From assembly GCA_945874805.1 (NCBI GenBank), contig CAMCJI010000012.1:1-35437 (forward strand): 35,437 bases of DNA. The letters run 5' to 3'. The notes under the pieces were generated by a model. The model saw only the letters and a list, made by a program, of their open reading frames with translations. It searched no databases and was not told the origin of the DNA. Made by a program: the position numbers and the translations under genes. Origin of the DNA: Asaia bogorensis. Lineage in GTDB: Bacteria; Pseudomonadota; Alphaproteobacteria; Acetobacterales; Acetobacteraceae. Shown one piece after another: positions 23,981 through 34,772 of this stretch (position 1 is its first letter; each line of letters starts with the position of its first letter).

Positions 23981-24837
23981 CCCGCCGCCGCGATGATGCG
24001 TTCCGCGAGCTTCAGATGCGGCCGGTCGATCATCTTGCCGTCGATCGAGAACACGCCGGCATCCGGCCGCTCGGCAAACGCCGCGGCGATCGTGTGCGCC
24101 CAGGCCAGCCTGGCGGGATCCGGCGTGAAGGCGGCATTCACCGCCGCCACTTGATCGGGATGGATGCACAGCTTGCCGGCGAACCCGTCAGCCGCGGCTT
24201 CGGCGGCCTCGCGCCCCAGCCCCTCGGGGTTGCGCGGATCGGGGAAGGGGGTGTCGAGCGCCGGCACCCCCGCGGCGGCGGCGGCCATCAGCACGCTCGC
24301 GCGTGCCGCGGCCACGGCTGCGGGATAGCTCAGGTCGGGCCGGCGGGGATCGATGCCCAGATCGGCGGACAGGTCCTCCGCCCCGAAACAGAACGCCAGC
24401 ACCCGCCGCGCGCCCGCCGCCATGCCGGGCAGCGCAAGCACGGAGGCCGCCGTCTCGGTGACGATCGGCAGCACTCCGATGCCGCCCACCGGCAGCCCGG
24501 CGGCGGTCTCCAGCGCCTCCAGATGATGGTCGAGTGCGGCGAGATCATCCGCCCCGCTGCATTTCGGCAGCATCACCGCCACCGGCGCGCCCGCCACGAT
24601 CGCGGCGAGGTCGGCGAGATACCACGGCGTGCCGCGCGGATTGATCCGCACGACCACCCCCGGCCGCACCAGCCCCGGCAGCAGCGCCGCCACCATCGCC
24701 CGCGCCGCGTCCTTCGACGCCGGGGCCACCGAATCCTCAAGGTCGAGGATCACCGCGTCGGACGGCCCGGCCAGCGCCTTCTCGGCCTTGCGGGCGGAAT
24801 CGCCGGGGGCGAACAATGGGCTGCGCAGGCGGATCAT
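23977..24837 (-). CDS. HpcH/HpaI-CitE family CoA-ester lyase
   Basis: Mg-dependent C-C lyase acting on beta-hydroxyacyl-CoA such as malyl-, methylmalyl- or citramalyl-CoA; 286 aa. The start [21 protein letters not shown] is the classic CitE-type N-terminus; the frame further upstream is the shadow of the MaoC gene. Motifs are [16 protein letters not shown] (E34, D35), [15 protein letters not shown] (R64), [11 protein letters not shown], the metal ligands E128 in VTETAAS and D155 in [11 protein letters not shown], and [10 protein letters not shown]. It overlaps both neighbours by 4 bases. With the MaoC protein it could run hydration then cleavage, as for itaconyl/mesaconyl-CoA to citramalyl-CoA to acetyl-CoA plus pyruvate. 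The substrate is inferred only. Confidence 0.9.
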
Positions 24838-25298
24838 GCGGTCTCTCCAACAGGCCGGCGCAGCATCAGCGCCTGCCGCTGGCATCGCGCCACCAGCACA
24901 TTCTTCTGATTGAACGCCTCATGCAGGAACGTGACGATGCCCGCATCCGGCCGCGACCGGCTGGGGCGGGTCGCCACCACGGTGGTAAGCGTGCGGATCG
25001 TATCGCCGGCGAATACGGGGGCCGGGAACGTCGTGTCCGTCATGCCGAGATTGGCCACAGTGGTGCCCATCGTCAGATTATGCACGCTCATGCCGATCAT
25101 CAGCCCGAGGGTGAAGATCGAATTCACCAGCGGCCGCCCGAATTCGGTCGCCGCCGCGAATTCCGCATCCAGATGCAGCTTTTGCACGTTCATCGTCATC
25201 GAACAGAACAGCACGTTGTCCGCCTCGGTCACCGTGCGGGTCCATTCCGCGTCGATCACCCGGCCTTCCGTCAGCTCCTCGAACCACAGCCCGGCCAT
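24834..25298 (-). CDS. MaoC-family (R)-specific enoyl-CoA hydratase
   Basis: Hot-dog fold acyl-CoA hydratase/dehydratase; 154 aa from ATG 25298 ([19 protein letters not shown]). The longer frame upstream adds a Cys/Arg-rich stretch unlike the family. The catalytic region is [20 protein letters not shown] then HLD: H42 is present but the usual Asp of the GDxNPxH motif is N37. I recall other MaoC proteins paired with CitE-type lyases having the same Asn, so it may mark a subfamily and not a dead enzyme. First gene of the six-gene MaoC-lyase-efflux run; its TGA overlaps the lyase ATG. Candidate activities are itaconyl-CoA or mesaconyl-CoA hydration. Confidence 0.87.
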
Positions 25299-25436
25299 CG
25301 CCTGCCGCCTTGTCTGTTGAACCTCATGAGATGCTGCCAACCCGGCCAGGATGCAAGCCAAGCGATGATTCTTGCGCTGCCCTGCGCGATATGCAAAGCA
25401 GCTTCCACAAGTAACAACCAATGGGGGACGTACGGG
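25299..25436. promoter_or_regulatory. Divergent promoter region between MaoC/efflux operon and second HAAT operon
   Basis: 138 bases between divergent starts. Visible elements are the perfect palindrome CTCATGAG (25323-25330), a dyad GCAAG-N13-CTTGC (25353-25375), and GGGGGAC at 25423-25429, a Shine-Dalgarno-like stretch before the GTG at 25437. The dyads are candidate operators for a regulator not encoded in this window. No clear -35/-10 pair was found. Confidence 0.4.
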
Positions 25437-26186
25437 GTGCCAAGCGCCATCCTGGAGACATCAGGGCTGACCAAGGAATTCCGCGGCTTCATCGCCGTGG
25501 ATCAGGTGGGCTTGCGCGTCGAGGAAGGCACGATCCATGCGTTGATCGGCCCCAACGGTGCGGGCAAGACCACCTGCTTCAACCTGCTCACCAAGTTTCT
25601 CCAACCCACCCGTGGTTCGATCAAGTTCAAGGGCCAGGACATCACCGGCCTGAAGCCGGCGATGGTCGCTCGCCTCGGCCTGATCCGCAGCTTCCAGATC
25701 TCGGCCGTGTTCAGCCACCTGACGGTGCTGGAGAACGTCCGCGTCGCCCTGCAACGCGCCCGCGGCGGCAGCTTCGACTTCTGGCGCTCGGAGGAGGTGC
25801 TGCACGTTTTTGACGACCGCGCCCGCGCCCTGATCGACGATGTCGGCCTGACCGAATTCACCGACACCCAGGCCGTCCTGCTCCCTTACGGCCGCAAGCG
25901 TGCGCTGGAGATCGCCACCACCCTCGCGCTGGACCCCGAGATGATGCTGCTCGACGAGCCGACGGCGGGAATGACACATGAGGACGTGGACCGCATCGTC
26001 GCCCTCATCCGCCGCATCCGCAAAGGCCGCACGATCCTGATGGTCGAGCACAACCTCTCGGTGGTCCAGGGCCTGTGCGACACCATCACCGTGCTCACCC
26101 GCGGCAAAGTGCTCGCCGAGGGCGACTACGCCACCGTCTCCGGCAATCCCGAAGTGATGAGCGCCTATCTGGGAACCGACGCATGA
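25437..26186 (+). CDS. livG: HAAT ABC transporter ATP-binding protein, LivG type (second system)
   Basis: ATPase of the second HAAT importer; 249 aa. GTG 25437 was chosen: it gives [21 protein letters not shown] and has GGGGGAC about eight bases upstream, whereas the frame extending to 24816 is antisense to the lyase and MaoC genes. Motifs are Walker [10 protein letters not shown], LivG-type signature [15 protein letters not shown], Walker [12 protein letters not shown] and H-loop [11 protein letters not shown]. Unlike the first system the ATPase genes come first in the operon. The end overlaps the livF start (ATGA). Confidence 0.92.
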
Positions 26187-26884
26187 CCGCGATGCTGGAA
26201 GTCCGCGGCCTGAACGCCTGGTACGGCGAAAGCCACGTCCTGCACGGCATCGATTTCGACGTGCATGAGGGCGAGGTCGTCACCCTGCTCGGCCGCAACG
26301 GTGCCGGCAAAACCTCCACCATGAAGTCCATCATGGGCCTCACCCCCCGCCGCGAAGGCTCGATCAGATTCAAGGGCCAGGAGACGATCGGCCTGCGCCC
26401 CGACCTGATCGCCCGCGCCGGCATCGCTTTCTGCCCGGAGGAGCGCGGCATCTTCGCCTCGCTCGACGTCACCGAGAACCTGATGCTCCCCCTCACCGTC
26501 GCCCCCGGCGGCATGACGGTGGAGGAGATCTACACGCTGTTCCCCAACCTCAAGGAACGCGCCCGCAGCCAGGGCACCAAGCTGTCCGGCGGTGAGCAGC
26601 AGATGCTCGCCATCGGCCGCATCCTGCGCACCGGCGCCAAGCTGCTGCTGCTCGATGAACCGACGGAGGGTCTCGCCCCCGTCATCGTCCAGCAGATCGG
26701 CCGCACCATCGGCGAGCTCAAGCGGCGCGGCTTCACCGTGCTGCTGGTCGAGCAGAACTTCCGCTTCGCCGCCAAAGTGGCCGACCGCCACTACGTTGTC
26801 GATCACGGCGTGGTCGTCGACATGATCCCCAACGACCAGCTCGAAGCGAGCATGGACAAGCTGCACGACTATCTGGGCGTTTGA
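26183..26884 (+). CDS. livF: HAAT ABC transporter ATP-binding protein, LivF type (second system)
   Basis: Partner ATPase; 233 aa starting [19 protein letters not shown], a canonical LivF N-terminus at the ATGA overlap with livG. Motifs are Walker A GRNGAGKTS, CPEERGIFASLDVTENL, signature LSGGEQQMLAIGR, Walker B LLLLDEPTEGLAP and VLLVEQNFRFA. The end KLHDYLGV is typical. It is followed after 28 bases by the first of two binding-protein genes. Confidence 0.93.
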   Translation: MTAMLEVRGLNAWYGESHVLHGIDFDVHEGEVVTLLGRNGAGKTSTMKSIMGLTPRREGSIRFKGQETIGLRPDLIARAGIAFCPEERGIFASLDVTENLMLPLTVAPGGMTVEEIYTLFPNLKERARSQGTKLSGGEQQMLAIGRILRTGAKLLLLDEPTEGLAPVIVQQIGRTIGELKRRGFTVLLVEQNFRFAAKVADRHYVVDHGVVVDMIPNDQLEASMDKLHDYLGV

Positions 26885-26912
26885 CTCCAAAAAACACATA
26901 GGGATGACAACG

Positions 26913-28124
26913 ATGCGCATGAACCGCCGCTCACTGCTCGCCACCGCCGCCGCAGCCCCCCTCGTATCCGCACCCGCCCGGGCCCAGTCGGCCACGGTGA
27001 AGTTCGGCGTGCTCACCGACATGTCCGGCCCCTACCGCGACCTCGCCGGCCCCGGCTCGATCGCCGCCACCAACATGGCCATCGACGAATACGCCACCTC
27101 TAAGGGCATCAAGGCCGAGGTCGTGTTCTCCGACCACCAGAACAAGGCCGACATCGCGGTCGCCACCGCCCGCCAGTGGATCGACCGGGACAACGTCGAT
27201 GTCATCCTCGATGTTTCTAACTCCGCCGTCGCACTCGCCACCGCCGGCGTCGTGCGTGAGAAGAACAAGGTGCTGATCGCCACCGGTGCGGCCTCCTCGG
27301 ACATCACCGGCACCGCCTGCAACGCCAACACGATCCATTGGGTGTACGACACCTACATGCTCGCCAAGTCCACCGGCGGCGCGATGGTCAAGGCCGGCGG
27401 TGACAGCTGGTACTTCATGACCGCCGACTACGCCTTCGGCCATGCGCTGGAGCGCGATGTCGGCAACTTCGTCCGCAGCGCCGGCGGCCGCGTCGTCGGC
27501 TCCTCGCGCACACCCTTCCCCGGCACGACGGACTTCTCCTCCTTCCTGCTGCAGGCCCAGGCCAGTGGCGCCAAAGTGCTCGGCCTCGCCAATGCCGGCA
27601 CCGACACCATCAACTCCATCAAGCAGGCCCGCGAGTTCGGCATCAAGCTGCGCTTGGCCGGTCTGCTCGTGTTCCTGTCCGACGTGCATTCCCTCGGCCT
27701 CGAAGTCGCCCAGGGCCTGCTGCTCAGCGAGAGCTTCTACTGGGACCTCAGTGATCGCACCCGCGCCTTCTCCGACCGCTACAGCCCAAGGATGGCAGGT
27801 GCCCGCCCGTCGATGGTCCAGGCCGGCAACTATGCCTCGGCCCTGCACTACCTCAAGGCGATCGCCGAGACCGGCGGCAAGCTGAAGGCCGACGGTGCCG
27901 CCATGGTCGCCCAGATGAAGGCGATGCCCGCCAGCGACGACTGCTTCGGCGAAGGCATCATCCGCGCCGACGGCCGCAAGATCCATCCCAGCTACCTGTT
28001 CGAGGTCAAGAAGCCGTCAGAGAGCAAGAGCCGCTACGACTACTACAAGCTGCTCGCCACCACCCCGGCCGATGAGGCATTCCGCCCGCTGAACGCCGGC
28101 CTTTGCCCGCTCGTCAAAGCCTGA
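26913..28124 (+). CDS. HAAT substrate-binding protein 1 of a tandem pair, Tat-type signal
   Basis: Periplasmic receptor of the second HAAT system; 403 aa from ATG 26913. This ATG has AGGG nine bases upstream; the ATG at 26904 directly abuts that site and is less likely, though in frame. The N-terminus MRMNRRSLLATAAAAPLVSA, ending APARAQ, is a twin-arginine-like signal. The mature part begins ATVKFGVLTDMSGPYRDLAG (Peripla_BP_6). Shared with the next gene are LAKSTGGA, GGDSWYF, TADYAFG, PFPGTTDFSSFLLQAQ, EFGIK and SYLFEVKKPSESK. More than half of aligned residues match by eye, so the pair arose by duplication. Ligand unknown. Confidence 0.92.
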   Translation: MRMNRRSLLATAAAAPLVSAPARAQSATVKFGVLTDMSGPYRDLAGPGSIAATNMAIDEYATSKGIKAEVVFSDHQNKADIAVATARQWIDRDNVDVILDVSNSAVALATAGVVREKNKVLIATGAASSDITGTACNANTIHWVYDTYMLAKSTGGAMVKAGGDSWYFMTADYAFGHALERDVGNFVRSAGGRVVGSSRTPFPGTTDFSSFLLQAQASGAKVLGLANAGTDTINSIKQAREFGIKLRLAGLLVFLSDVHSLGLEVAQGLLLSESFYWDLSDRTRAFSDRYSPRMAGARPSMVQAGNYASALHYLKAIAETGGKLKADGAAMVAQMKAMPASDDCFGEGIIRADGRKIHPSYLFEVKKPSESKSRYDYYKLLATTPADEAFRPLNAGLCPLVKA

Positions 28125-28151
28125 TCTTTTCGAACTAACGGAGTCTCCTGC

Positions 28152-29375
28152 ATGTCTCTCTCTCGCCGTGCCCTCCTGGGCACCGCCGCGGCCGTTCCGG
28201 CCGCGGCGGGCTTCTCGCGCCGTGCCCGCGCGCAAACCCCGACGGTCAAGATCGGCGTACTCAACGACCAGTCCGGTCCCTATCGCGACACCGGCGGCGT
28301 CACCTCCGTTGCCTGCGCCCGCCTCGCCGCTGAGGAATTCGCCGGCAAGGGCTTCAATGTCGAGATCATCTCCGCCGACCACCAGAACAAGCCAGACGTC
28401 GGCGCCGGCATCGCCCGCCAGTGGTACGACCGTGACGGCGTGGACATGATCATCGATGTCCCCACCTCGTCGGTCGCGCTTGCCGTCGCCGGGGTCGCCA
28501 AGGAGAAGAACAAGCTGCACGTCAACGTCGGTGCGGCCACCGTCGATCTCTCCGGCAAGTCCTGCGCCCCCAGCGTCATCCACTACACCTACGACACCTG
28601 GATGCTCGCCAAGTCCACCGGCGGCGCCACCGTGAAGTCCGGCGGCGACAGCTGGTACTTCATCACCGCCGACTACGCCTTCGGCCAGCAGCTCCAGAAG
28701 GACACCTCCAACCTCGTCCTCGCCTCCGGCGGCAAGGTGATGGGCAGCTCCGCCTATCCCTTCCCCGGCACGACCGACTTCTCCTCCTTCCTGCTGCAGG
28801 CCCAGTCCTCTGGTGCGAAGATCCTCGGCCTCGCCAACGCCGGCGCGGACACGGTGAACTCCATCAAGCAGGCGAAGGAATTCGGCATCAAGATGAAGAT
28901 CGCCTCGATGCTGATGTTCCTCACCGACGTGAACGCGCTCGGCCTGGATGTCGCCCAGGGCCTGACCCTGACCGAAACCTTCTACTGGGACCTCAACGAC
29001 AGCACCCGCGCCTTCACCGAGCGGGTGAAGAAGGTCTCGCCGAACAACTACCCGAACATGATCCACGCCGGTAACTACTCCGGCACCCTGCACTTCCTCA
29101 AAGCTGTCGCGGACCTTGGTGCTGCCAAGATCAAGAGCCTCGACGGCACCGCCATCGCCGAACGCATGAAGGCGATGCCGACCGACGACCAGGCCTTCGG
29201 CAAGCACTCCATCCGCGCCGACGGCCGCGGCCTCTTCCCCAGCTACCTGTTCGAGGTGAAGAAGCCCTCCGAGAGCAAGGGCAAGTGGGACTACTACAAG
29301 CAGATCGCCACCACCCCCGGGCCGGAAGCCTTCCGCCCGATGGCCGAAGGCGGCTGCTACTATCTGAAGGCCTGA
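28152..29375 (+). CDS. HAAT substrate-binding protein 2 of a tandem pair, Tat-type signal
   Basis: Paralogue of the preceding receptor; 407 aa, start MSLSRRALLGTAAAVPAAAG with a twin-arginine-type signal ending RARAQ. The mature part begins PTVKIGVLNDQSGPYRDTGG. GGAG lies just upstream of the ATG and the gap to the first receptor is 27 bases. Differences cluster in the region after the first strand (the GGVTSVACARLAAEEF segment) and in loops such as SVIHYTYDTWM, so the two may differ in ligand range while sharing one LivHMGF core. A strong stem-loop follows the stop before the permease genes. Confidence 0.92.
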   Translation: MSLSRRALLGTAAAVPAAAGFSRRARAQTPTVKIGVLNDQSGPYRDTGGVTSVACARLAAEEFAGKGFNVEIISADHQNKPDVGAGIARQWYDRDGVDMIIDVPTSSVALAVAGVAKEKNKLHVNVGAATVDLSGKSCAPSVIHYTYDTWMLAKSTGGATVKSGGDSWYFITADYAFGQQLQKDTSNLVLASGGKVMGSSAYPFPGTTDFSSFLLQAQSSGAKILGLANAGADTVNSIKQAKEFGIKMKIASMLMFLTDVNALGLDVAQGLTLTETFYWDLNDSTRAFTERVKKVSPNNYPNMIHAGNYSGTLHFLKAVADLGAAKIKSLDGTAIAERMKAMPTDDQAFGKHSIRADGRGLFPSYLFEVKKPSESKGKWDYYKQIATTPGPEAFRPMAEGGCYYLKA

Positions 29376-29387
29376 TCGCCGACAGGG

Positions 29388-29426
29388 GAGGGGGTCTGCC
29401 TGCTGTCCGCAGATGGCAGCCCCCTC
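29388..29426 (+). terminator. Intercistronic stem-loop between SBP and permease genes
   Basis: GAGGGGGTCTGCC (29388-29400) pairs with GGCAGCCCCCTC (29415-29426): a 12-bp perfect stem with one bulged T and a 14-base loop, 12 bases after the stop of the second receptor. No T-run follows and livH starts 39 bases later. Such structures after binding-protein genes usually stabilise the upstream message and let only part of the transcription continue into the permeases. I therefore read it as a partial terminator or 3' stabiliser and not an operon end. Confidence 0.65.
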
Positions 29427-29465
29427 ACCCACGCCCGACAGCACACCACCCGGAACCGCCCCCCG

Positions 29466-30353
29466 ATGATGATGATTCTCGGCTACCCCGCCCCCCTGAT
29501 GTTCGGCCAGCTCCTGCTCGGCCTCATCAACGGCGCCTTTTATGCGCTGCTCTCTTTGGGGCTGGCCGTGATCTTCGGCATGCTCAACATCGTCAACTTC
29601 GCCCATGGCGCGCTGTTCATGCTCGGCGCGTTCGTCGCCTGGGGGATGCTGGAATATCTCGGCATCGGCTATTGGTGGGCGCTGCTGCTGGCGCCCATCG
29701 TCGTCGGCGCCTTCGGCCTGCTCCTTGAAAGGACCCTGATCAGCCGCCTCTACAAACTCGACCATCTCTACGGCCTGCTGCTCACCTTCGGCCTCGCGCT
29801 GATCATCGAAGGCGTCGCCCGCAACGAGTTCGGCTCGTCGGGCATGCCCTACCGCATCCCCGCCGCCCTCCAGGGTGCCACCGATGTCGGCTTCATGTTC
29901 TTGCCGAACTACCGCGCCTGGGTCGTCGTCGCGGCCGCCGCCATGTGCCTCTTCACCTGGCTCATCATCGAGAAGACCTCGCTCGGCGCCACGCTCCGCG
30001 CCGCCACCGAAAACGCCCCCCTCGTGCAGGCCTTCGGCATCAACGTGCCGCTGATGATCTCGCTGACCTACGCCGGCGGCGTGGCGCTTGCCGCCTTCGC
30101 CGGCGTGCTCGCCGCTCCCATCTATTCGGTGAACCCCAACATGGGGGCGAACTTCATCATCACCGTCTTTGCGGTGGTCGTTATCGGCGGCATGGGCTCC
30201 ATCCTCGGCTCCATCGTCACCGGTTTCGGCCTCGGCCTCGTCGAGGGCATGACCAAGGTGTTCTACCCCCAGGCCTCCTCCACCGTGATCTTCGTCGTCA
30301 TGGTCATCGTGCTGCTCGCCCGCCCCGCCGGCCTGTTCGGAAAGAACGCCTGA
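29466..30353 (+). CDS. livH: HAAT ABC transporter permease, LivH type (second system)
   Basis: Inner-membrane permease; 295 aa. Three consecutive ATGs (29466, 29469, 29472) are possible starts and no clear ribosome-binding site is visible. Family features are LLGLINGAFYALLSLGLAVI, FGMLNIVNFAHGALFMLGAF, the coupling segment GATLRAATENAPLVQAFGIN and GGMGSILGSIVTGFGLGLVE (each quoted in part). About eight membrane segments. The stop TGA is one base before the livM ATG. Confidence 0.93.
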   Translation: MMMILGYPAPLMFGQLLLGLINGAFYALLSLGLAVIFGMLNIVNFAHGALFMLGAFVAWGMLEYLGIGYWWALLLAPIVVGAFGLLLERTLISRLYKLDHLYGLLLTFGLALIIEGVARNEFGSSGMPYRIPAALQGATDVGFMFLPNYRAWVVVAAAAMCLFTWLIIEKTSLGATLRAATENAPLVQAFGINVPLMISLTYAGGVALAAFAGVLAAPIYSVNPNMGANFIITVFAVVVIGGMGSILGSIVTGFGLGLVEGMTKVFYPQASSTVIFVVMVIVLLARPAGLFGKNA

Positions 30354-30354
30354 C

Positions 30355-31287
30355 ATGATGGGCTTCTCCCGCCACCAGACCATCGCCTTCGGCATCCTGC
30401 TCGCCGCCATCGTCGTCGCCCCGATGGTCCTCTACCCGATCTACCTGATGAAGGTGCTCTGCTTCGCCCTGTTCGCCTGCGCCTTCAACCTGCTGATCGG
30501 CTATGTCGGCCTGATGAGCTTCGGCCACGCCGCCTATTTCGGCATGGGCGGCTACATCGCCGCCCACTCCGCCAAGGTCTGGGGCCTCACGCCCGAACTC
30601 GCCATCATCGCCGGCGGCCTCGGCGGGGCAGCCCTGGGTGCGGTCTTCGGCTGGCTCGCCATCCGCCGCCAGGGCATCTACTTCGCCATGATCACCCTTG
30701 CTCTTGCCCAGATGAGCTACTTCTTCTGCCTCCAGGCCCCCTTCACCCACGGTGAGGACGGCATCCAGCAAGTCCCCCGCGGCGCCCTGTTCGGCCTGAT
30801 CTCCCTCAAAGACGACATGACGATGTACATCCTCGTCTCCGTCATCTTCCTCGCCGTCTTCCTCCTCATCCACCGCATCATCCACTCCCCCTTCGGCCAG
30901 GTCCTCAAAGCCATCCGCGAAAACGAACCCCGCGCGACGTCGCTGGGCTACCGCACGGACGACTACAAACTCGTCGCCTTCATCCTCTCCGCCGGCATCG
31001 CCGGTATCGCCGGTGGCACGAAATCCCTCGTCTTCGGCATCGCGACCCTCACCGACGTCCACTTCGCCATGTCCGGCGAAGTCGTCCTGATGACCCTGCT
31101 CGGTGGCATGGGAACCATCTTCGGCCCCGTCATGGGCTCGATCGTCATGATCACCATGGAAAGCTACCTGGCCCAGTTCGGCTCCCTGGTGACAATCATG
31201 CAAGGCATCATCTTCGTCACCTGCGTCCTCCTCTTCCGCCGCGGCATCATCGGCGAAATCGCCGCGAAGCTGCGGATCACGCTGTAG
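30355..31287 (+). CDS. livM: HAAT ABC transporter permease, LivM type (second system)
   Basis: Partner permease; 310 aa, start MMGFSRHQTIAFGILLAAI (ATG 30355 or 30358). LivM features are CAFNLLIGYVGLMSFGHAAY, the GMGGYIAAHSAKVWG region, HSPFGQVLKAIRENEPRATS and GGMGTIFGPVMGSIVMI (quoted in parts). Last gene of the second HAAT operon. Its TAG stop lies at the outer edge of the inverted-repeat element that fills the space to the convergent esterase gene. Confidence 0.93.
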   Translation: MMGFSRHQTIAFGILLAAIVVAPMVLYPIYLMKVLCFALFACAFNLLIGYVGLMSFGHAAYFGMGGYIAAHSAKVWGLTPELAIIAGGLGGAALGAVFGWLAIRRQGIYFAMITLALAQMSYFFCLQAPFTHGEDGIQQVPRGALFGLISLKDDMTMYILVSVIFLAVFLLIHRIIHSPFGQVLKAIRENEPRATSLGYRTDDYKLVAFILSAGIAGIAGGTKSLVFGIATLTDVHFAMSGEVVLMTLLGGMGTIFGPVMGSIVMITMESYLAQFGSLVTIMQGIIFVTCVLLFRRGIIGEIAAKLRITL

Positions 31288-32561: not shown

Positions 32562-34772
32562 ATGCCCGCTCTCCCGCGCCTGTCCGTCTCGCATTTCCGA
32601 CCGGAGCCGCTCTTCGTCCCCCGCAGCGTCGCGGTCATCGGCGCCGACACCCCGGCCGGCCAGCGTGTGCTGGCCAACCTGCATCAAGGCGGCTTCCCCG
32701 GCGCGATCCTGCCGGCCGCCGACGCCGCCACCCTGCCTGAAGCCCCCGACCTCGCGGTCATCTGCCTCGCCGACGCCCCGCTCGCCCCCACCTTCGCCGC
32801 TCTCGCTGCCCGCGGCTGCTTCGCCGCCATCGTCACCGGCCCGCAAACCGGCTTGCGCGACCTGGCGATCGCCCACGGCGTCCGCTCCCTCGGCCCCGGC
32901 TCCTTCGGCCTCGCGATCCCCGGCCTCCGCCTGAACGCCACCCTCTCCCACCTCCCGCCACCCCCCGGCCGGCTTGCCGTCGTCTCCCAATCCGCCGCCC
33001 TCTGCCGCGCTTTGATCGACTGGGCGGAGCCGAACGGCGTCGGTTTCAGCTACATCGTCGGCATCGGCGGCAATGACGAGATGGGGTTCGCCCTCGTGCT
33101 CGACTGGCTGTCCCAGGACCGCACCACCGGTGCCATCCTGCTGGACATCCGCCGCATCCGCGACCCCCGCGCCTTCCTCTCCGCCGCCCGCACCCGCCCC
33201 GTCGTCGCCATCCGCGCCGGCTCGCGCCTGTTCGACCCCGACGGCAGCGCCGACGCGGCGTTCGAAGCCGCCTTGCGCCGCGCCGGAGTCCTCTGCGTGG
33301 CCACCCTGGAGGACCTGCTCGCCGCCGCCGAAACCCTCACCCGCGCCCCGCCGCCGCGCACCGAGGCGCTGGCCATCGCCACCAACGCCATCGGCCCCGC
33401 CCAGCTCGCCGCCGATGCCGCCCTGCGCCAGGGCCTGGCGCTGGCCGCCCTCGCACCCGAAACCCGCGACGTCCTGCGCCTGGCCATCCCCCGCGCCTTC
33501 GTCAGCCACGGCGGGGCCGAGGTGCCGCGCGGCGTCGGCGACATCGTCTATGCCGGCATGGAGCAGCCGGCCAAGCTCGCCGAGGCCTGCGCCCTGCTGG
33601 CCGGCGCCCGCGAGGCCGGCGGCGTGCTCGTCGTCCACGCCCCAACCGGCGAGGGCGACGCCATCGCCATCGCCGCCCTGGCCGCCGGCGCCGTCGGCCT
33701 GCGCGTGCCTGTGCTCGCCTGCGTCATGGGCGAGACGACCGGTGCTGCGCATCGCCGCCTGCTCGCCGACGCCGGCGTGCCCGTCTTCGCCACCCCCGAG
33801 CAGGCCGTCCGCGCCTTCTGGCACCTCGTCCAGCACCGCCGCAACCGCGCCGCCGCCGCCGAACTGCCGCCCCGCCACGTCCTCAGCCTGCGGCCCGACC
33901 GCGCCCGCGTCGAAGCCGCCCTGGCTGCCGCCGACGGCCCGGCTTTGGCCGCCGCCTACGGCATCGCCGTCCCCCCGCCGCTCCACCTCACCCTCAGCCA
34001 GGACGCGATGTTCGGCCCGATCATCGGTATAGCCGGTGCCATCGACCTCCCCCCCCTCAACCTCCCCCTCGCCCGCGCAATGCTCGCCCGCGCCGAAATC
34101 GCCGACCCCGAGGACACCGCCGCCGACGCCCTCGTCCGCCTGAGCCAACTCGCGATCGACTGCCCCAGCGTCGCCAGCCTCACCACCGACGGCGCCCTCA
34201 CGCTCTTTCCCCCCAACACCCCGCCGCCGCGCCTGGCCCTGCCGCCCTATCCCGCCGACCTCACCGAGCATTTCAACCAGGCCGGCACCACCTTCACCCT
34301 GCGCCCGATCCGCCCGGAGGACGCCGAGGCGCACGGCGCCTTCTTCGCCCGCCTCTCCCCCGAAGACATCCGCCGCCGCTTCTTCTCCAGCCTGCGCGAG
34401 CTCTCCCGCGAACAGACCGCCCGGATGACCCAGATCGACTACGACCGCGAGATGGCCTTCATCGCCGTGCGCGACGACACCGCCGAGACCGTCGGCGTCG
34501 CCCGCCTCGTCCGCGACACGCTCACCGGCGAGGGCGAATTCGCCGTGATCGTCCAGGCCGACATGAAGGGCCGCGGCATCGCCGGCCGCCTCATGCGCGC
34601 CCTCATCGCCTGGGCCCGCACCATCGGCCTGCACGCCATCGTCGGCCAGATCCTGGCGGACAACCAGCCGATGCTGCGCTTCATCCGCCACCTCGGCTTC
34701 ACCCTCCAGCGCGTGGCGGACGAGCCGGACGTGATGGAGGCACGGCTGGAACTTGCCGCCGAACCGTCCTGA
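32562..34772 (+). CDS. PatZ/Pat-like protein acetyltransferase with a collapsed ATP-grasp domain
   Basis: Related to the large bacterial protein lysine acetyltransferases (acyl-CoA synthetase NDP-forming-like region plus GNAT); 736 aa, against nearly 900 for E. coli PatZ. The start MPALPRLSVSHFRPEPLFVP has GAGGGG five bases upstream; an ATG at 32502 is in frame but adds an atypical leader. Order: CoA-binding Rossmann part (VPRSVAVIGAD, 19-29), flavodoxin-like ligase parts (LAVVSQSAALCRALIDWA, about 138-155; GIGGNDEMG), then an ATP-grasp remnant at about 440-560, and a C-terminal GNAT from 577 (FTLRPIRPEDAEAH) with the acetyl-CoA loop MKGRGIAGRLM. At 466-505 the sequence jumps from AYGIAVP to DAMFGPIIGIAG and IDLPPLNLPLARAM; the stretch normally carrying the VLK and HKSD-type ATP-site residues is absent. 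The reading frame is intact. Targets and cofactor use unknown. Confidence 0.85.
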   Translation: MPALPRLSVSHFRPEPLFVPRSVAVIGADTPAGQRVLANLHQGGFPGAILPAADAATLPEAPDLAVICLADAPLAPTFAALAARGCFAAIVTGPQTGLRDLAIAHGVRSLGPGSFGLAIPGLRLNATLSHLPPPPGRLAVVSQSAALCRALIDWAEPNGVGFSYIVGIGGNDEMGFALVLDWLSQDRTTGAILLDIRRIRDPRAFLSAARTRPVVAIRAGSRLFDPDGSADAAFEAALRRAGVLCVATLEDLLAAAETLTRAPPPRTEALAIATNAIGPAQLAADAALRQGLALAALAPETRDVLRLAIPRAFVSHGGAEVPRGVGDIVYAGMEQPAKLAEACALLAGAREAGGVLVVHAPTGEGDAIAIAALAAGAVGLRVPVLACVMGETTGAAHRRLLADAGVPVFATPEQAVRAFWHLVQHRRNRAAAAELPPRHVLSLRPDRARVEAALAAADGPALAAAYGIAVPPPLHLTLSQDAMFGPIIGIAGAIDLPPLNLPLARAMLARAEIADPEDTAADALVRLSQLAIDCPSVASLTTDGALTLFPPNTPPPRLALPPYPADLTEHFNQAGTTFTLRPIRPEDAEAHGAFFARLSPEDIRRRFFSSLRELSREQTARMTQIDYDREMAFIAVRDDTAETVGVARLVRDTLTGEGEFAVIVQADMKGRGIAGRLMRALIAWARTIGLHAIVGQILADNQPMLRFIRHLGFTLQRVADEPDVMEARLELAAEPS

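What the first reader, a model, noticed from the sequence alone, without database searches (positions are those of the whole stretch)
32562..34772. PatZ-like acetyltransferase that has lost the core of its ATP-grasp domain
The CoA-binding and ligase-like domains and the GNAT acetyltransferase are intact. Between AYGIAVP (about 466) and FGPIIGIAG (about 484), roughly the stretch holding the nucleotide-binding lobe of the family is missing, along with the glycine loop after FGP. The frame is open and codon use is normal, so this looks like a stable variant, not decay. It suggests an acetyltransferase whose regulatory half binds CoA-type ligands without ATP.
Basis: partly seen in the sequence, partly recalled or inferred. 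Interest (0 to 1): 0.55.

Follow-up and report, generated by a model that had tools for sequence, protein, structure and literature searches.

The report
Acetyltransferase without its ATP-clamping lobe
This is a bacterial protein-acetylating enzyme of the PatZ type that has lost exactly the half of its ATP-binding domain that clamps ATP; related bacteria have made the same cut many times independently, which suggests the ATP site is optional and gives a natural test of what it does.

Summary
The 736-residue protein at 32562-34772 (+) is a PatZ-type acetyltransferase. Only 16 residues lie between AYG and FGP, against 98 or 100 in 100 of 137 full-length rows. The missing block is the whole N-terminal (RAGNYA) lobe of the ATP-grasp domain; the second lobe and the GNAT domain remain. 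Among 187 aligned rows the spacing is 16-57 (50 short) or 87-121 (137 full), nothing between, so this is no assembly error. On a tree built without these columns the state changes nine times; a single origin is rejected (AU p 4e-16 for 14 short forms of the window's family, 5e-10 for all 28). Full forms keep the ATP-site residues; short forms keep the scaffold (FGP, PPLN) while the leftover ATP-site residues drift in many. The protein is predicted to fold (AF2 pLDDT 92.8), keeps the GNAT glutamate (187 of 187 rows), and shares a genome with an Acs bearing PKTRSGK. Best reading: an acetyl-CoA-dependent acetyltransferase uncoupled from nucleotide. It is a new variant of a known kind; the recurrence is the interesting part. 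Function is inferred, not shown.

The parts
32562..34772 (+). Whole gene: 736-aa PatZ-type acetyltransferase lacking the RAGNYA lobe of ATP-grasp (77.1 kDa)
   Evidence: Open frame and translation; PDB sequence match to E. coli PatZ 9it0/9isq in two blocks, 331 and 327 bits; mass
32604..32957 (+). N-terminal CoA-binding-type Rossmann domain, shortened (residues 15-132)
   Evidence: Alignment gap of 13 residues; CoA_binding_2 not listed at E up to 1 or 0.01
32964..33338 (+). Succinyl-CoA-ligase-like flavodoxin domain (residues 135-259); no phosphohistidine motif
   Evidence: PF13607 E 4.5e-26; segment RAGSRLFDPDGSADAAFEAA without HTG
33345..33851 (+). Ligase_CoA-like domain (residues 262-430)
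   Evidence: PF00549 E 1e-4, below its cut-off; the body, residues 13-436, aligns to ACD1 alpha with Z 32.6
33963..34010 (+). Junction between AYG and FGP (residues 468-483) where the RAGNYA lobe is missing
   Evidence: 16 residues here against 87-121 in 137 full rows
33987..34217 (+). Remnant C-terminal (kinase-like) lobe of ATP-grasp (residues 476-552); glycine loop and DxN motif lost, FGP and PPLN kept
   Evidence: blocks of ten residues at pLDDT 81-95
34278..34751 (+). GNAT acetyltransferase domain (residues 573-730), E659 = PatZ E809 equivalent, motif A KGRGIA
   Evidence: PF13302 E 1.4e-14, PF00583 E 2.5e-11; E659 in 187 of 187 rows; 4u5y Z 25.5

Best explanation
The gene encodes an acetyl-CoA-dependent protein lysine acetyltransferase of the PatZ kind whose ATP-grasp domain has lost its whole N-terminal RAGNYA lobe. 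SHOWN (by sequence, tree and model): the lobe is missing as one unit; the second lobe stays, predicted to fold, as a connector between the ligase-like body and the GNAT domain; across short forms the leftover ATP-site residues are much less conserved than the scaffold residues; the same excision is placed about nine times on the tree; the GNAT domain is conserved. INFERRED: the protein cannot bind ATP in the ATP-grasp manner and has no ligase activity; acetyl transfer is done by the GNAT domain; the likely targets are AMP-forming acyl-CoA synthetases, such as the Acs in the same genome with a PKTRSGK motif; whatever nucleotide input full-length PatZ receives through its ATP-grasp domain has been discarded. 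In this lineage loss looks stepwise: phosphohistidine first, then the ATP phosphate loop, then the lobe, then the leftover residues.
For: Spacing 16-57 in 50 rows and 87-121 in 137 rows, none between; 3 pairs of rows are duplicates. Of six short proteins given to Pfam, three match only the second half of ATP-grasp_5 (L005 108-221, L006 112-203, L044 103-202) and three match none of it at E 0.01 (window, L012, L056). Nine changes on a tree without these columns, with starred branches forcing 5 (short forms of the window's family) and 4 (other short); one clade rejected, p 4e-16, 3e-6 and 5e-10. ATP-site residues in full rows: Lys 131 of 137, hinge Gln 131 of 137, FGxGG glycines 134, 128 and 135 of 137; in short rows Lys and Gln are 0 of 50 and the glycines 18, 14 and 22 of 50, while FGP stays at 49-50 and PPLN at 47-50 of 50. 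Window-side full-length relatives have already scrambled the phosphate loop: Ser526 is Arg in 22 of 28, against Ser in 34 of 44 and 62 of 65 of two other sets, and 23 of these 28 have a spacing below 98, against 2 of the other 109 full rows. HTG phosphohistidine motif: 0 of 16 family short, 0 of 72 family full, 48 of 65 other full, 1 of 34 other short rows. AF2 model pLDDT 92.8, pTM 0.90; best Foldseek match liganded E. coli PatZ. dN/dS 0.14-0.49 in six short pairs. Acs with PKTRSGK in the genome.
Against: No enzyme assay; acetyltransferase activity, target and ligand are inferred. In the literature the N-terminal region is needed for E. coli PatZ and S. enterica Pat activity (PMC8556138, passages), so a truncated version might be inactive. 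Decay of the leftover ATP site is not uniform: L008-L010 keep all three glycines, and four of five delta/Competibacter short forms keep them too. dN/dS between this gene and its nearest relative L005 is 0.49 against 0.14 and 0.18 in two full-length pairs, which fits some relaxation. No SIR2 deacetylase was found in the genome, so Acs control would need another deacetylase (three Hist_deacetyl matches). A single AF2 model from 63 sequences says nothing about ligands. One same-genus genome (about 90% complete) has no close homologue, best E 8e-12, so the gene is dispensable or missing from that assembly.
Confidence: 0.75

Rival explanations
1. A gene in decay: the acetyltransferase has lost function and the deletion is one step of pseudogene formation.
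For: dN/dS 0.49 with L005, higher than in the two full-length pairs; against L005 the second lobe is 55% identical and the linker 53%, the four other domains 65-82%; CoA-binding domain also shortened; no close homologue found in the one other genome of the genus in the sample.
Confidence: 0.1
2. One ancient deletion inherited or passed on by gene transfer, not repeated excision.
For: The boundaries look alike in the lineages compared, as one origin would give.
Against: The tree is a gene tree, so transfer of the whole gene is already allowed for; one clade is rejected for the 14 short forms of the window's family, for 9 of them in the window's own clade, and for all 28; short Vibrio breoganii pairs with full Vibrio hepatarius and short Erwiniaceae sit among full Enterobacterales. 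Spread of the deleted segment alone by homologous recombination within the family is not excluded.
Confidence: 0.05
3. The lobe is supplied in trans by another protein, or nucleotide still binds to the remaining lobe.
For: In ADP-forming synthetases the parts can be separate chains (separate ACD1 chains appear).
Against: In the own genome the strong ATP-grasp_5 matches lie in three frames of 726, 711 and 708 aa, with one weaker match (32 bits) in a 428-aa frame; no stand-alone first lobe was seen (genome about 91% complete). The window protein has lost all of the leftover site residues that were tabulated, and other short forms many of them.
Confidence: 0.05
4. Assembly error that removed part of the gene in this assembly of 401 contigs.
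For: The assembly is fragmented.
Against: Frame kept; same state in L005, L122 and other independent assemblies, and in named isolates outside the family, among them a chromosome of Vibrio breoganii titled complete.
Confidence: 0.01

Closest known systems
E. coli PatZ / S. enterica Pat (type I, class I-alpha GNAT lysine acetyltransferase; PDB 9it0, 9isq)
   Same: Order of domains (ligase-like body, ATP-grasp second lobe, C-terminal GNAT), GNAT glutamate, no HTG phosphohistidine motif; best Foldseek match to the model (TM 0.86 by model length); Z 28.1 over 707 residues
   Different: PatZ has a complete ATP-grasp domain; that domain alone was deposited as 'Ligand bound AGD of enzyme' (9isb; ligand not seen here). 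The window protein lacks the first lobe, the glycine loop and the DxN motif, and has a shortened CoA-binding domain
ADP-forming acetyl-CoA synthetase ACD1 (Ca. Korarchaeum; 4xz3, 4ybz) and PH0766
   Same: Body fold, residues 13-436, Z 32.6, the highest Z
   Different: No ATP-grasp first lobe, no phosphohistidine motif, GNAT domain added; ligase activity is not expected
S. lividans Pat GNAT domain (4nxy, 4u5y)
   Same: GNAT domain fold, Z 25.0-25.5, 29% identity
   Different: S. lividans PatA is type II, with the ligase-like domain at the other end (PMC8556138, passages)
Type III and IV acetyltransferases (cAMP-GNAT Rv0998, AcuA-like single GNAT)
   Same: GNAT domain; acts, like these, without an ATP-grasp site (inference)
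   Different: Keeps the ligase-like body and the second ATP-grasp lobe

Membership tests
Type I (class I-alpha) GNAT lysine acetyltransferase, PatZ/Pat | N-terminal domain homologous to NDP-forming acyl-CoA synthetase | tested here: met
   TIGR02717 alpha-subunit model matches residues 16-425 at 186 bits (below its 567 cut-off); PF13607 E 4.5e-26; fold Z 32.6. The first Rossmann part is shortened
Type I (class I-alpha) GNAT lysine acetyltransferase, PatZ/Pat | C-terminal GNAT domain with motif A and the E809-equivalent glutamate | tested here: met
Type I (class I-alpha) GNAT lysine acetyltransferase, PatZ/Pat | Complete ATP-grasp domain, as in E. coli PatZ | tested here: not met
   First lobe absent
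Type I (class I-alpha) GNAT lysine acetyltransferase, PatZ/Pat | Mass above 80 kDa, as reviews state for this class | tested here: not met
   77.1 kDa; criterion from passages of PMC8556138 and PMC11254643
Type I (class I-alpha) GNAT lysine acetyltransferase, PatZ/Pat | Acetyl-CoA binding by the N-terminal domain, cooperativity, oligomers | not testable with these tools
   Needs purified protein
ATP-grasp superfamily | RAGNYA domain followed by kinase-like domain, with Lys in RAGNYA strand 2 and DxN in the second | tested here: not met
   RAGNYA lobe and Lys absent, DxN lost; definition from passages of PMC4431377
ADP-forming acyl-CoA synthetase | Phosphohistidine (HTG) loop | tested here: not met
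   Segment RAGSRLFDPDGSADAAFEAA
Short-form group described here | AYG-FGP spacing under 60 with FGP, PPLN and GNAT kept | tested here: met
   Spacing 16; FGP, PPLN and GNAT glutamate present

The most novel reading that the evidence does not exclude
In full-length Pat enzymes the ATP-grasp domain is a working nucleotide sensor that gates acetyl transfer (the lysine, the hinge glutamine and the glycine loop are kept in 93-99% of full-length rows, and a structure titled ligand-bound exists for it). Repeated excision of its clamping lobe is then convergent rewiring: nine or so lineages turned an energy-and-acetyl-CoA sensor into an acetyl-CoA-only acetyltransferase. The window model sits nearer the liganded PatZ arrangement (TM 0.86 against 0.81 for apo), while the model of its full-length relative L016 sits nearer the apo one (0.82 against 0.79), as if excision fixed the 'on' shape.
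Probability: 0.25. Interest if true: 0.72.

Novelty: new variant of a known kind. Interest (0 to 1): 0.5.

Why it matters
The exact role of the large ligase-like half of Pat enzymes is said to be 'not completely understood' (PMC8556138, passage). A lobe that has been cut out cleanly about nine times separates what the enzyme seems to need (the body, the FGP/PPLN connector, the GNAT domain) from what it does not (the ATP clamp). Matched pairs exist, for example Vibrio breoganii (short) with Vibrio hepatarius (full), and L006 (short) with L017 (full), in which a nucleotide effect on acetylation can be tested directly.

Tried and rejected
Assembly error and pseudogene: rejected or marked unlikely, see rivals. 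Single origin of the deletion: rejected by the AU tests. Lobe supplied in trans: no stand-alone first lobe seen in the own genome. A link between short Pat and loss of SIR2 sirtuin: of the 15 family genomes that I classed as short, 5 are's list of genomes with a SIR2 match; over all 200 genomes 110 have one. Relatedness confounds this, and I make no claim. Genomic context gave no lead: the neighbours are a branched-chain-type ABC transporter, an alpha/beta hydrolase and a frame without a Pfam match. In the listings of the paper searches (open-access full text only) I saw no title or abstract start about a Pat without an ATP-grasp lobe; the paper behind 9it0, 9isq and 9isb was not among them, so its ligand and conclusions are unknown to me. 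I first assumed that all type I Pat proteins lack the phosphohistidine; one search corrected this (48 of 65 full rows outside the family set keep HTG). L057 (very long branch in the quick tree) was left out of the careful tree. The careful tree used 64 of 187 rows, chosen by hand to cover short lineages and their nearest full relatives; the quick tree used 83 of 107. The sets 'family near', 'family other' and 'other' were also drawn by hand; L102, titled Roseomonas but placed with Azospirillaceae in the quick tree, is in 'other' and has HTG. Neither fold search shows any ligand. In the VIA-align list the rows mostly test residues 9-430, so the second lobe on its own is barely tested.

Full report
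WHAT IS THERE. The frame 32562-34772 on the + strand encodes 736 residues. Pfam finds a succinyl-CoA-ligase-like flavodoxin domain (135-259), a weak Ligase_CoA match (297-418) and a GNAT domain (about 579-714). By sequence, E. coli PatZ (9it0) aligns in two blocks, 15-437 and 474-721, which skip residues 455-584 of that chain. The only trace of ATP-grasp_5 is a 48-residue stretch at E 0.019.

WHAT IS MISSING. In relatives I counted residues between AYG (465-467 here) and FGP (from 484 here). Of 187 aligned rows, 50 have 16-57 and 137 have 87-121; no row lies between (three duplicate pairs). Of the 137 full rows 100 have exactly 98 or 100. In the AF2 model of the full-length relative L016 the corresponding stretch holds strands 508-511, 528-532, 546-550 and 576-580 with helices 514-524 and 553-566, and what follows has counterparts in the window model (strands 476-481, 485-490; helices 501-510, 518-533). 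ATP-grasp modules consist of an N-terminal RAGNYA domain and a C-terminal kinase-like domain, with a lysine in RAGNYA strand 2 (PMC4431377, passages). The loss is therefore the RAGNYA lobe as a unit. Of six short proteins given to Pfam, three still match the second half of the model (L005 108-221, L006 112-203, L044 103-202 of 221) and three show no match at E 0.01 (window, L012, L056); the four full ones match from position 1, 2 or 3 to 221.

HOW OFTEN. The window's family is taken to be Acetobacteraceae in the GTDB sense, by inference: family-sample loci and named Acetobacteraceae records share contigs and place on the tree. Short forms occur in that family (window, L005-L015, L035, L122, L128), Burkholderiaceae, Macromonas, Erwiniaceae, Vibrio breoganii, Competibacteraceae and deltaproteobacterial genomes. 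In the family sample 105 of 200 genomes have a match at E 1e-60; I class 15 of these as short, from complete genes and, for G006, from a piece that spans the junction at a contig end; a number of the 105 are fragments and were not classed. In a phylum sample 110 of 398 genomes matched at 1e-40. Of 32 loci that I looked at from it, 4 are short (L174 and L222-L224); nearly all the other frames printed are of 883 aa or more, but they were not fetched. The state is a minority one in that sample, although the short query favours short forms.

INDEPENDENT LOSSES. A careful tree of 64 of the 187 rows, built from the N-terminal body and the GNAT domain only, needs nine changes between the two states. 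Well-supported branches force five for the family's short group and four for the others, and neither group is one clade in any of 200 bootstrap trees. Holding short forms together is rejected for the 14 of the family (p 4.0e-16), for the nine in the window's own 17-row clade (p 3.1e-6) and for all 28 (p 4.9e-10); these groups follow the trait but were tested after the tree had been seen. Vibrio breoganii (short) pairs with Vibrio hepatarius (full), and L006 (short) with L017 (full), both at 100/99 support. Counts on a tree cannot tell gain from loss; that the lobe was present at first follows from its homology to ADP-forming synthetases.

DECAY BEFORE AND AFTER. In full rows the ATP-site positions are kept: Lys 131 of 137, hinge Gln 131 of 137, glycines of FGxGG 134, 128 and 135 of 137, the Asn of DxN 104 and the Pro after it 135 of 137. 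In short rows these glycines are kept in 18, 14 and 22 of 50, the Asn in 5 and the Pro in 11, while FGP (49-50), PPLN (47-50) and a following Leu (50 of 50) stay. Many of the 50 short rows are Burkholderiaceae. By lineage the picture is mixed: L008-L010 keep the three glycines in 3 of 3, the delta/Competibacter group in 4 of 5, others only some or none. Among full-length proteins the window-side set (28 rows) has scrambled the phosphate-binding loop (Ser526 is Arg in 22 of 28; the Lys at 532 is not among its four commonest letters), while two other sets keep it (Ser 34 of 44 and 62 of 65; Lys 40 of 44 and 60 of 65). In the same 28 rows 23 have a spacing below 98, against 2 of the other 109 full rows. 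The HTG phosphohistidine motif is absent from 16 of 16 family short rows, 28 of 28 and 44 of 44 family full rows, and 33 of 34 other short rows, but present in 48 of 65 other full rows. The order read from this, for the window's lineage, is: phosphohistidine, then phosphate loop, then lobe, then leftover residues. In other lineages the order is not resolved, and L047 is short with HTG kept.

IS IT A WORKING PROTEIN. The model is confident (pLDDT 92.8, pTM 0.90), with the remnant lobe folded. Its best Foldseek match is liganded E. coli PatZ (TM 0.86 by model length; apo 0.81); VIA-align ranks the ACD1 body first (Z 32.6) and gives liganded PatZ Z 28.1 over 707 residues. The L016 model is closer to apo (0.82 against 0.79). 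These are single models, so I use this only for the speculative reading. dN/dS by a simple counting method is 0.14-0.35 in five short pairs, 0.49 for the window gene with L005, 0.16 for the mixed pair L006 with L017, and 0.14 and 0.18 in two full pairs. The GNAT glutamate is in 187 of 187 rows. The genome holds an Acs over the NCBIfam cut-off with PKTRSGK, three matches to Hist_deacetyl, and no SIR2 match (about 91% complete).

The CoA-binding domain is not intact. Thirteen residues are missing in it, and CoA_binding_2 is not listed up to E 1. At the 0.01 cut it is also missing in L005 but present in L006 and L012 (33-34 bits), L016 and L017 (42-46 bits) and the four proteins from outside the family (73-83 bits). 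A 13-residue gap at nearly the same place occurs in the full-length relative L020, so it is not tied to the lobe loss. Whether the protein still binds CoA there is open.

WHAT IS KNOWN. [quoted passage not shown]). None of the passages that I saw mentions a form without part of the ATP-grasp domain. PDB entry 9isb holds the ATP-grasp domain of PatZ alone, titled 'Ligand bound AGD of enzyme' (that AGD stands for ATP-grasp domain is my reading); I have not seen its ligand or paper. The window protein fails two descriptive features of the class (complete ATP-grasp, mass), so I call it a lobe-less variant of type I Pat, not a plain member.

VERDICT. The enzyme is of a known kind, and the surprise lies in the recurrent excision and in how well full-length relatives keep the ATP site.

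Noticed in passing
L074-L083, L085, L088-L091, L093 and others: 48 of 65 full-length Pat-like rows from outside the window's family keep an HTG phosphohistidine motif in the ligase-like half, whereas a review says the domain of type I enzymes is inactive for lack of the histidine. Some may be working ligase-acetyltransferase fusions.
   Followed up: partly
L047: A short form without the RAGNYA lobe that still has the HTG motif, so phosphohistidine loss does not always come first.
   Followed up: no
window 32604-32957; L005, L007, L020, L035: Ten to thirteen residues of the N-terminal CoA-binding Rossmann domain are missing in both short and full family members; CoA_binding_2 scores fall from 73-83 bits outside the family to no match here.
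   Followed up: partly
own genome G000: No SIR2 sirtuin was found, although the family sample has one in 110 of 200 genomes; three Hist_deacetyl matches may take its place.
   Followed up: partly
G004 (same genus): The one other genome of the genus in the sample has no close homologue (best E 8e-12), so the gene may have been lost there or lie in a gap.
   Followed up: no
window 24816-31287: A branched-chain-type ABC transporter cluster with two tandem Peripla_BP_6 binding proteins (26904-28124 and 28152-29375), two permeases and an ATPase.
   Followed up: no
L026, L028, L029, L125, L017, L116, L119 and others: Full-length window-side relatives show shrunken spacings (87-97 in 23 of 28) where other full rows are almost fixed at 98 or more (2 of 109 below), a sign of relaxed constraint before excision.
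   Followed up: partly
L224 (G340): A further short form in another family code (f65) of the phylum sample, found only when the report was being checked; it is not in the trees and may be one more independent loss.
   Followed up: no
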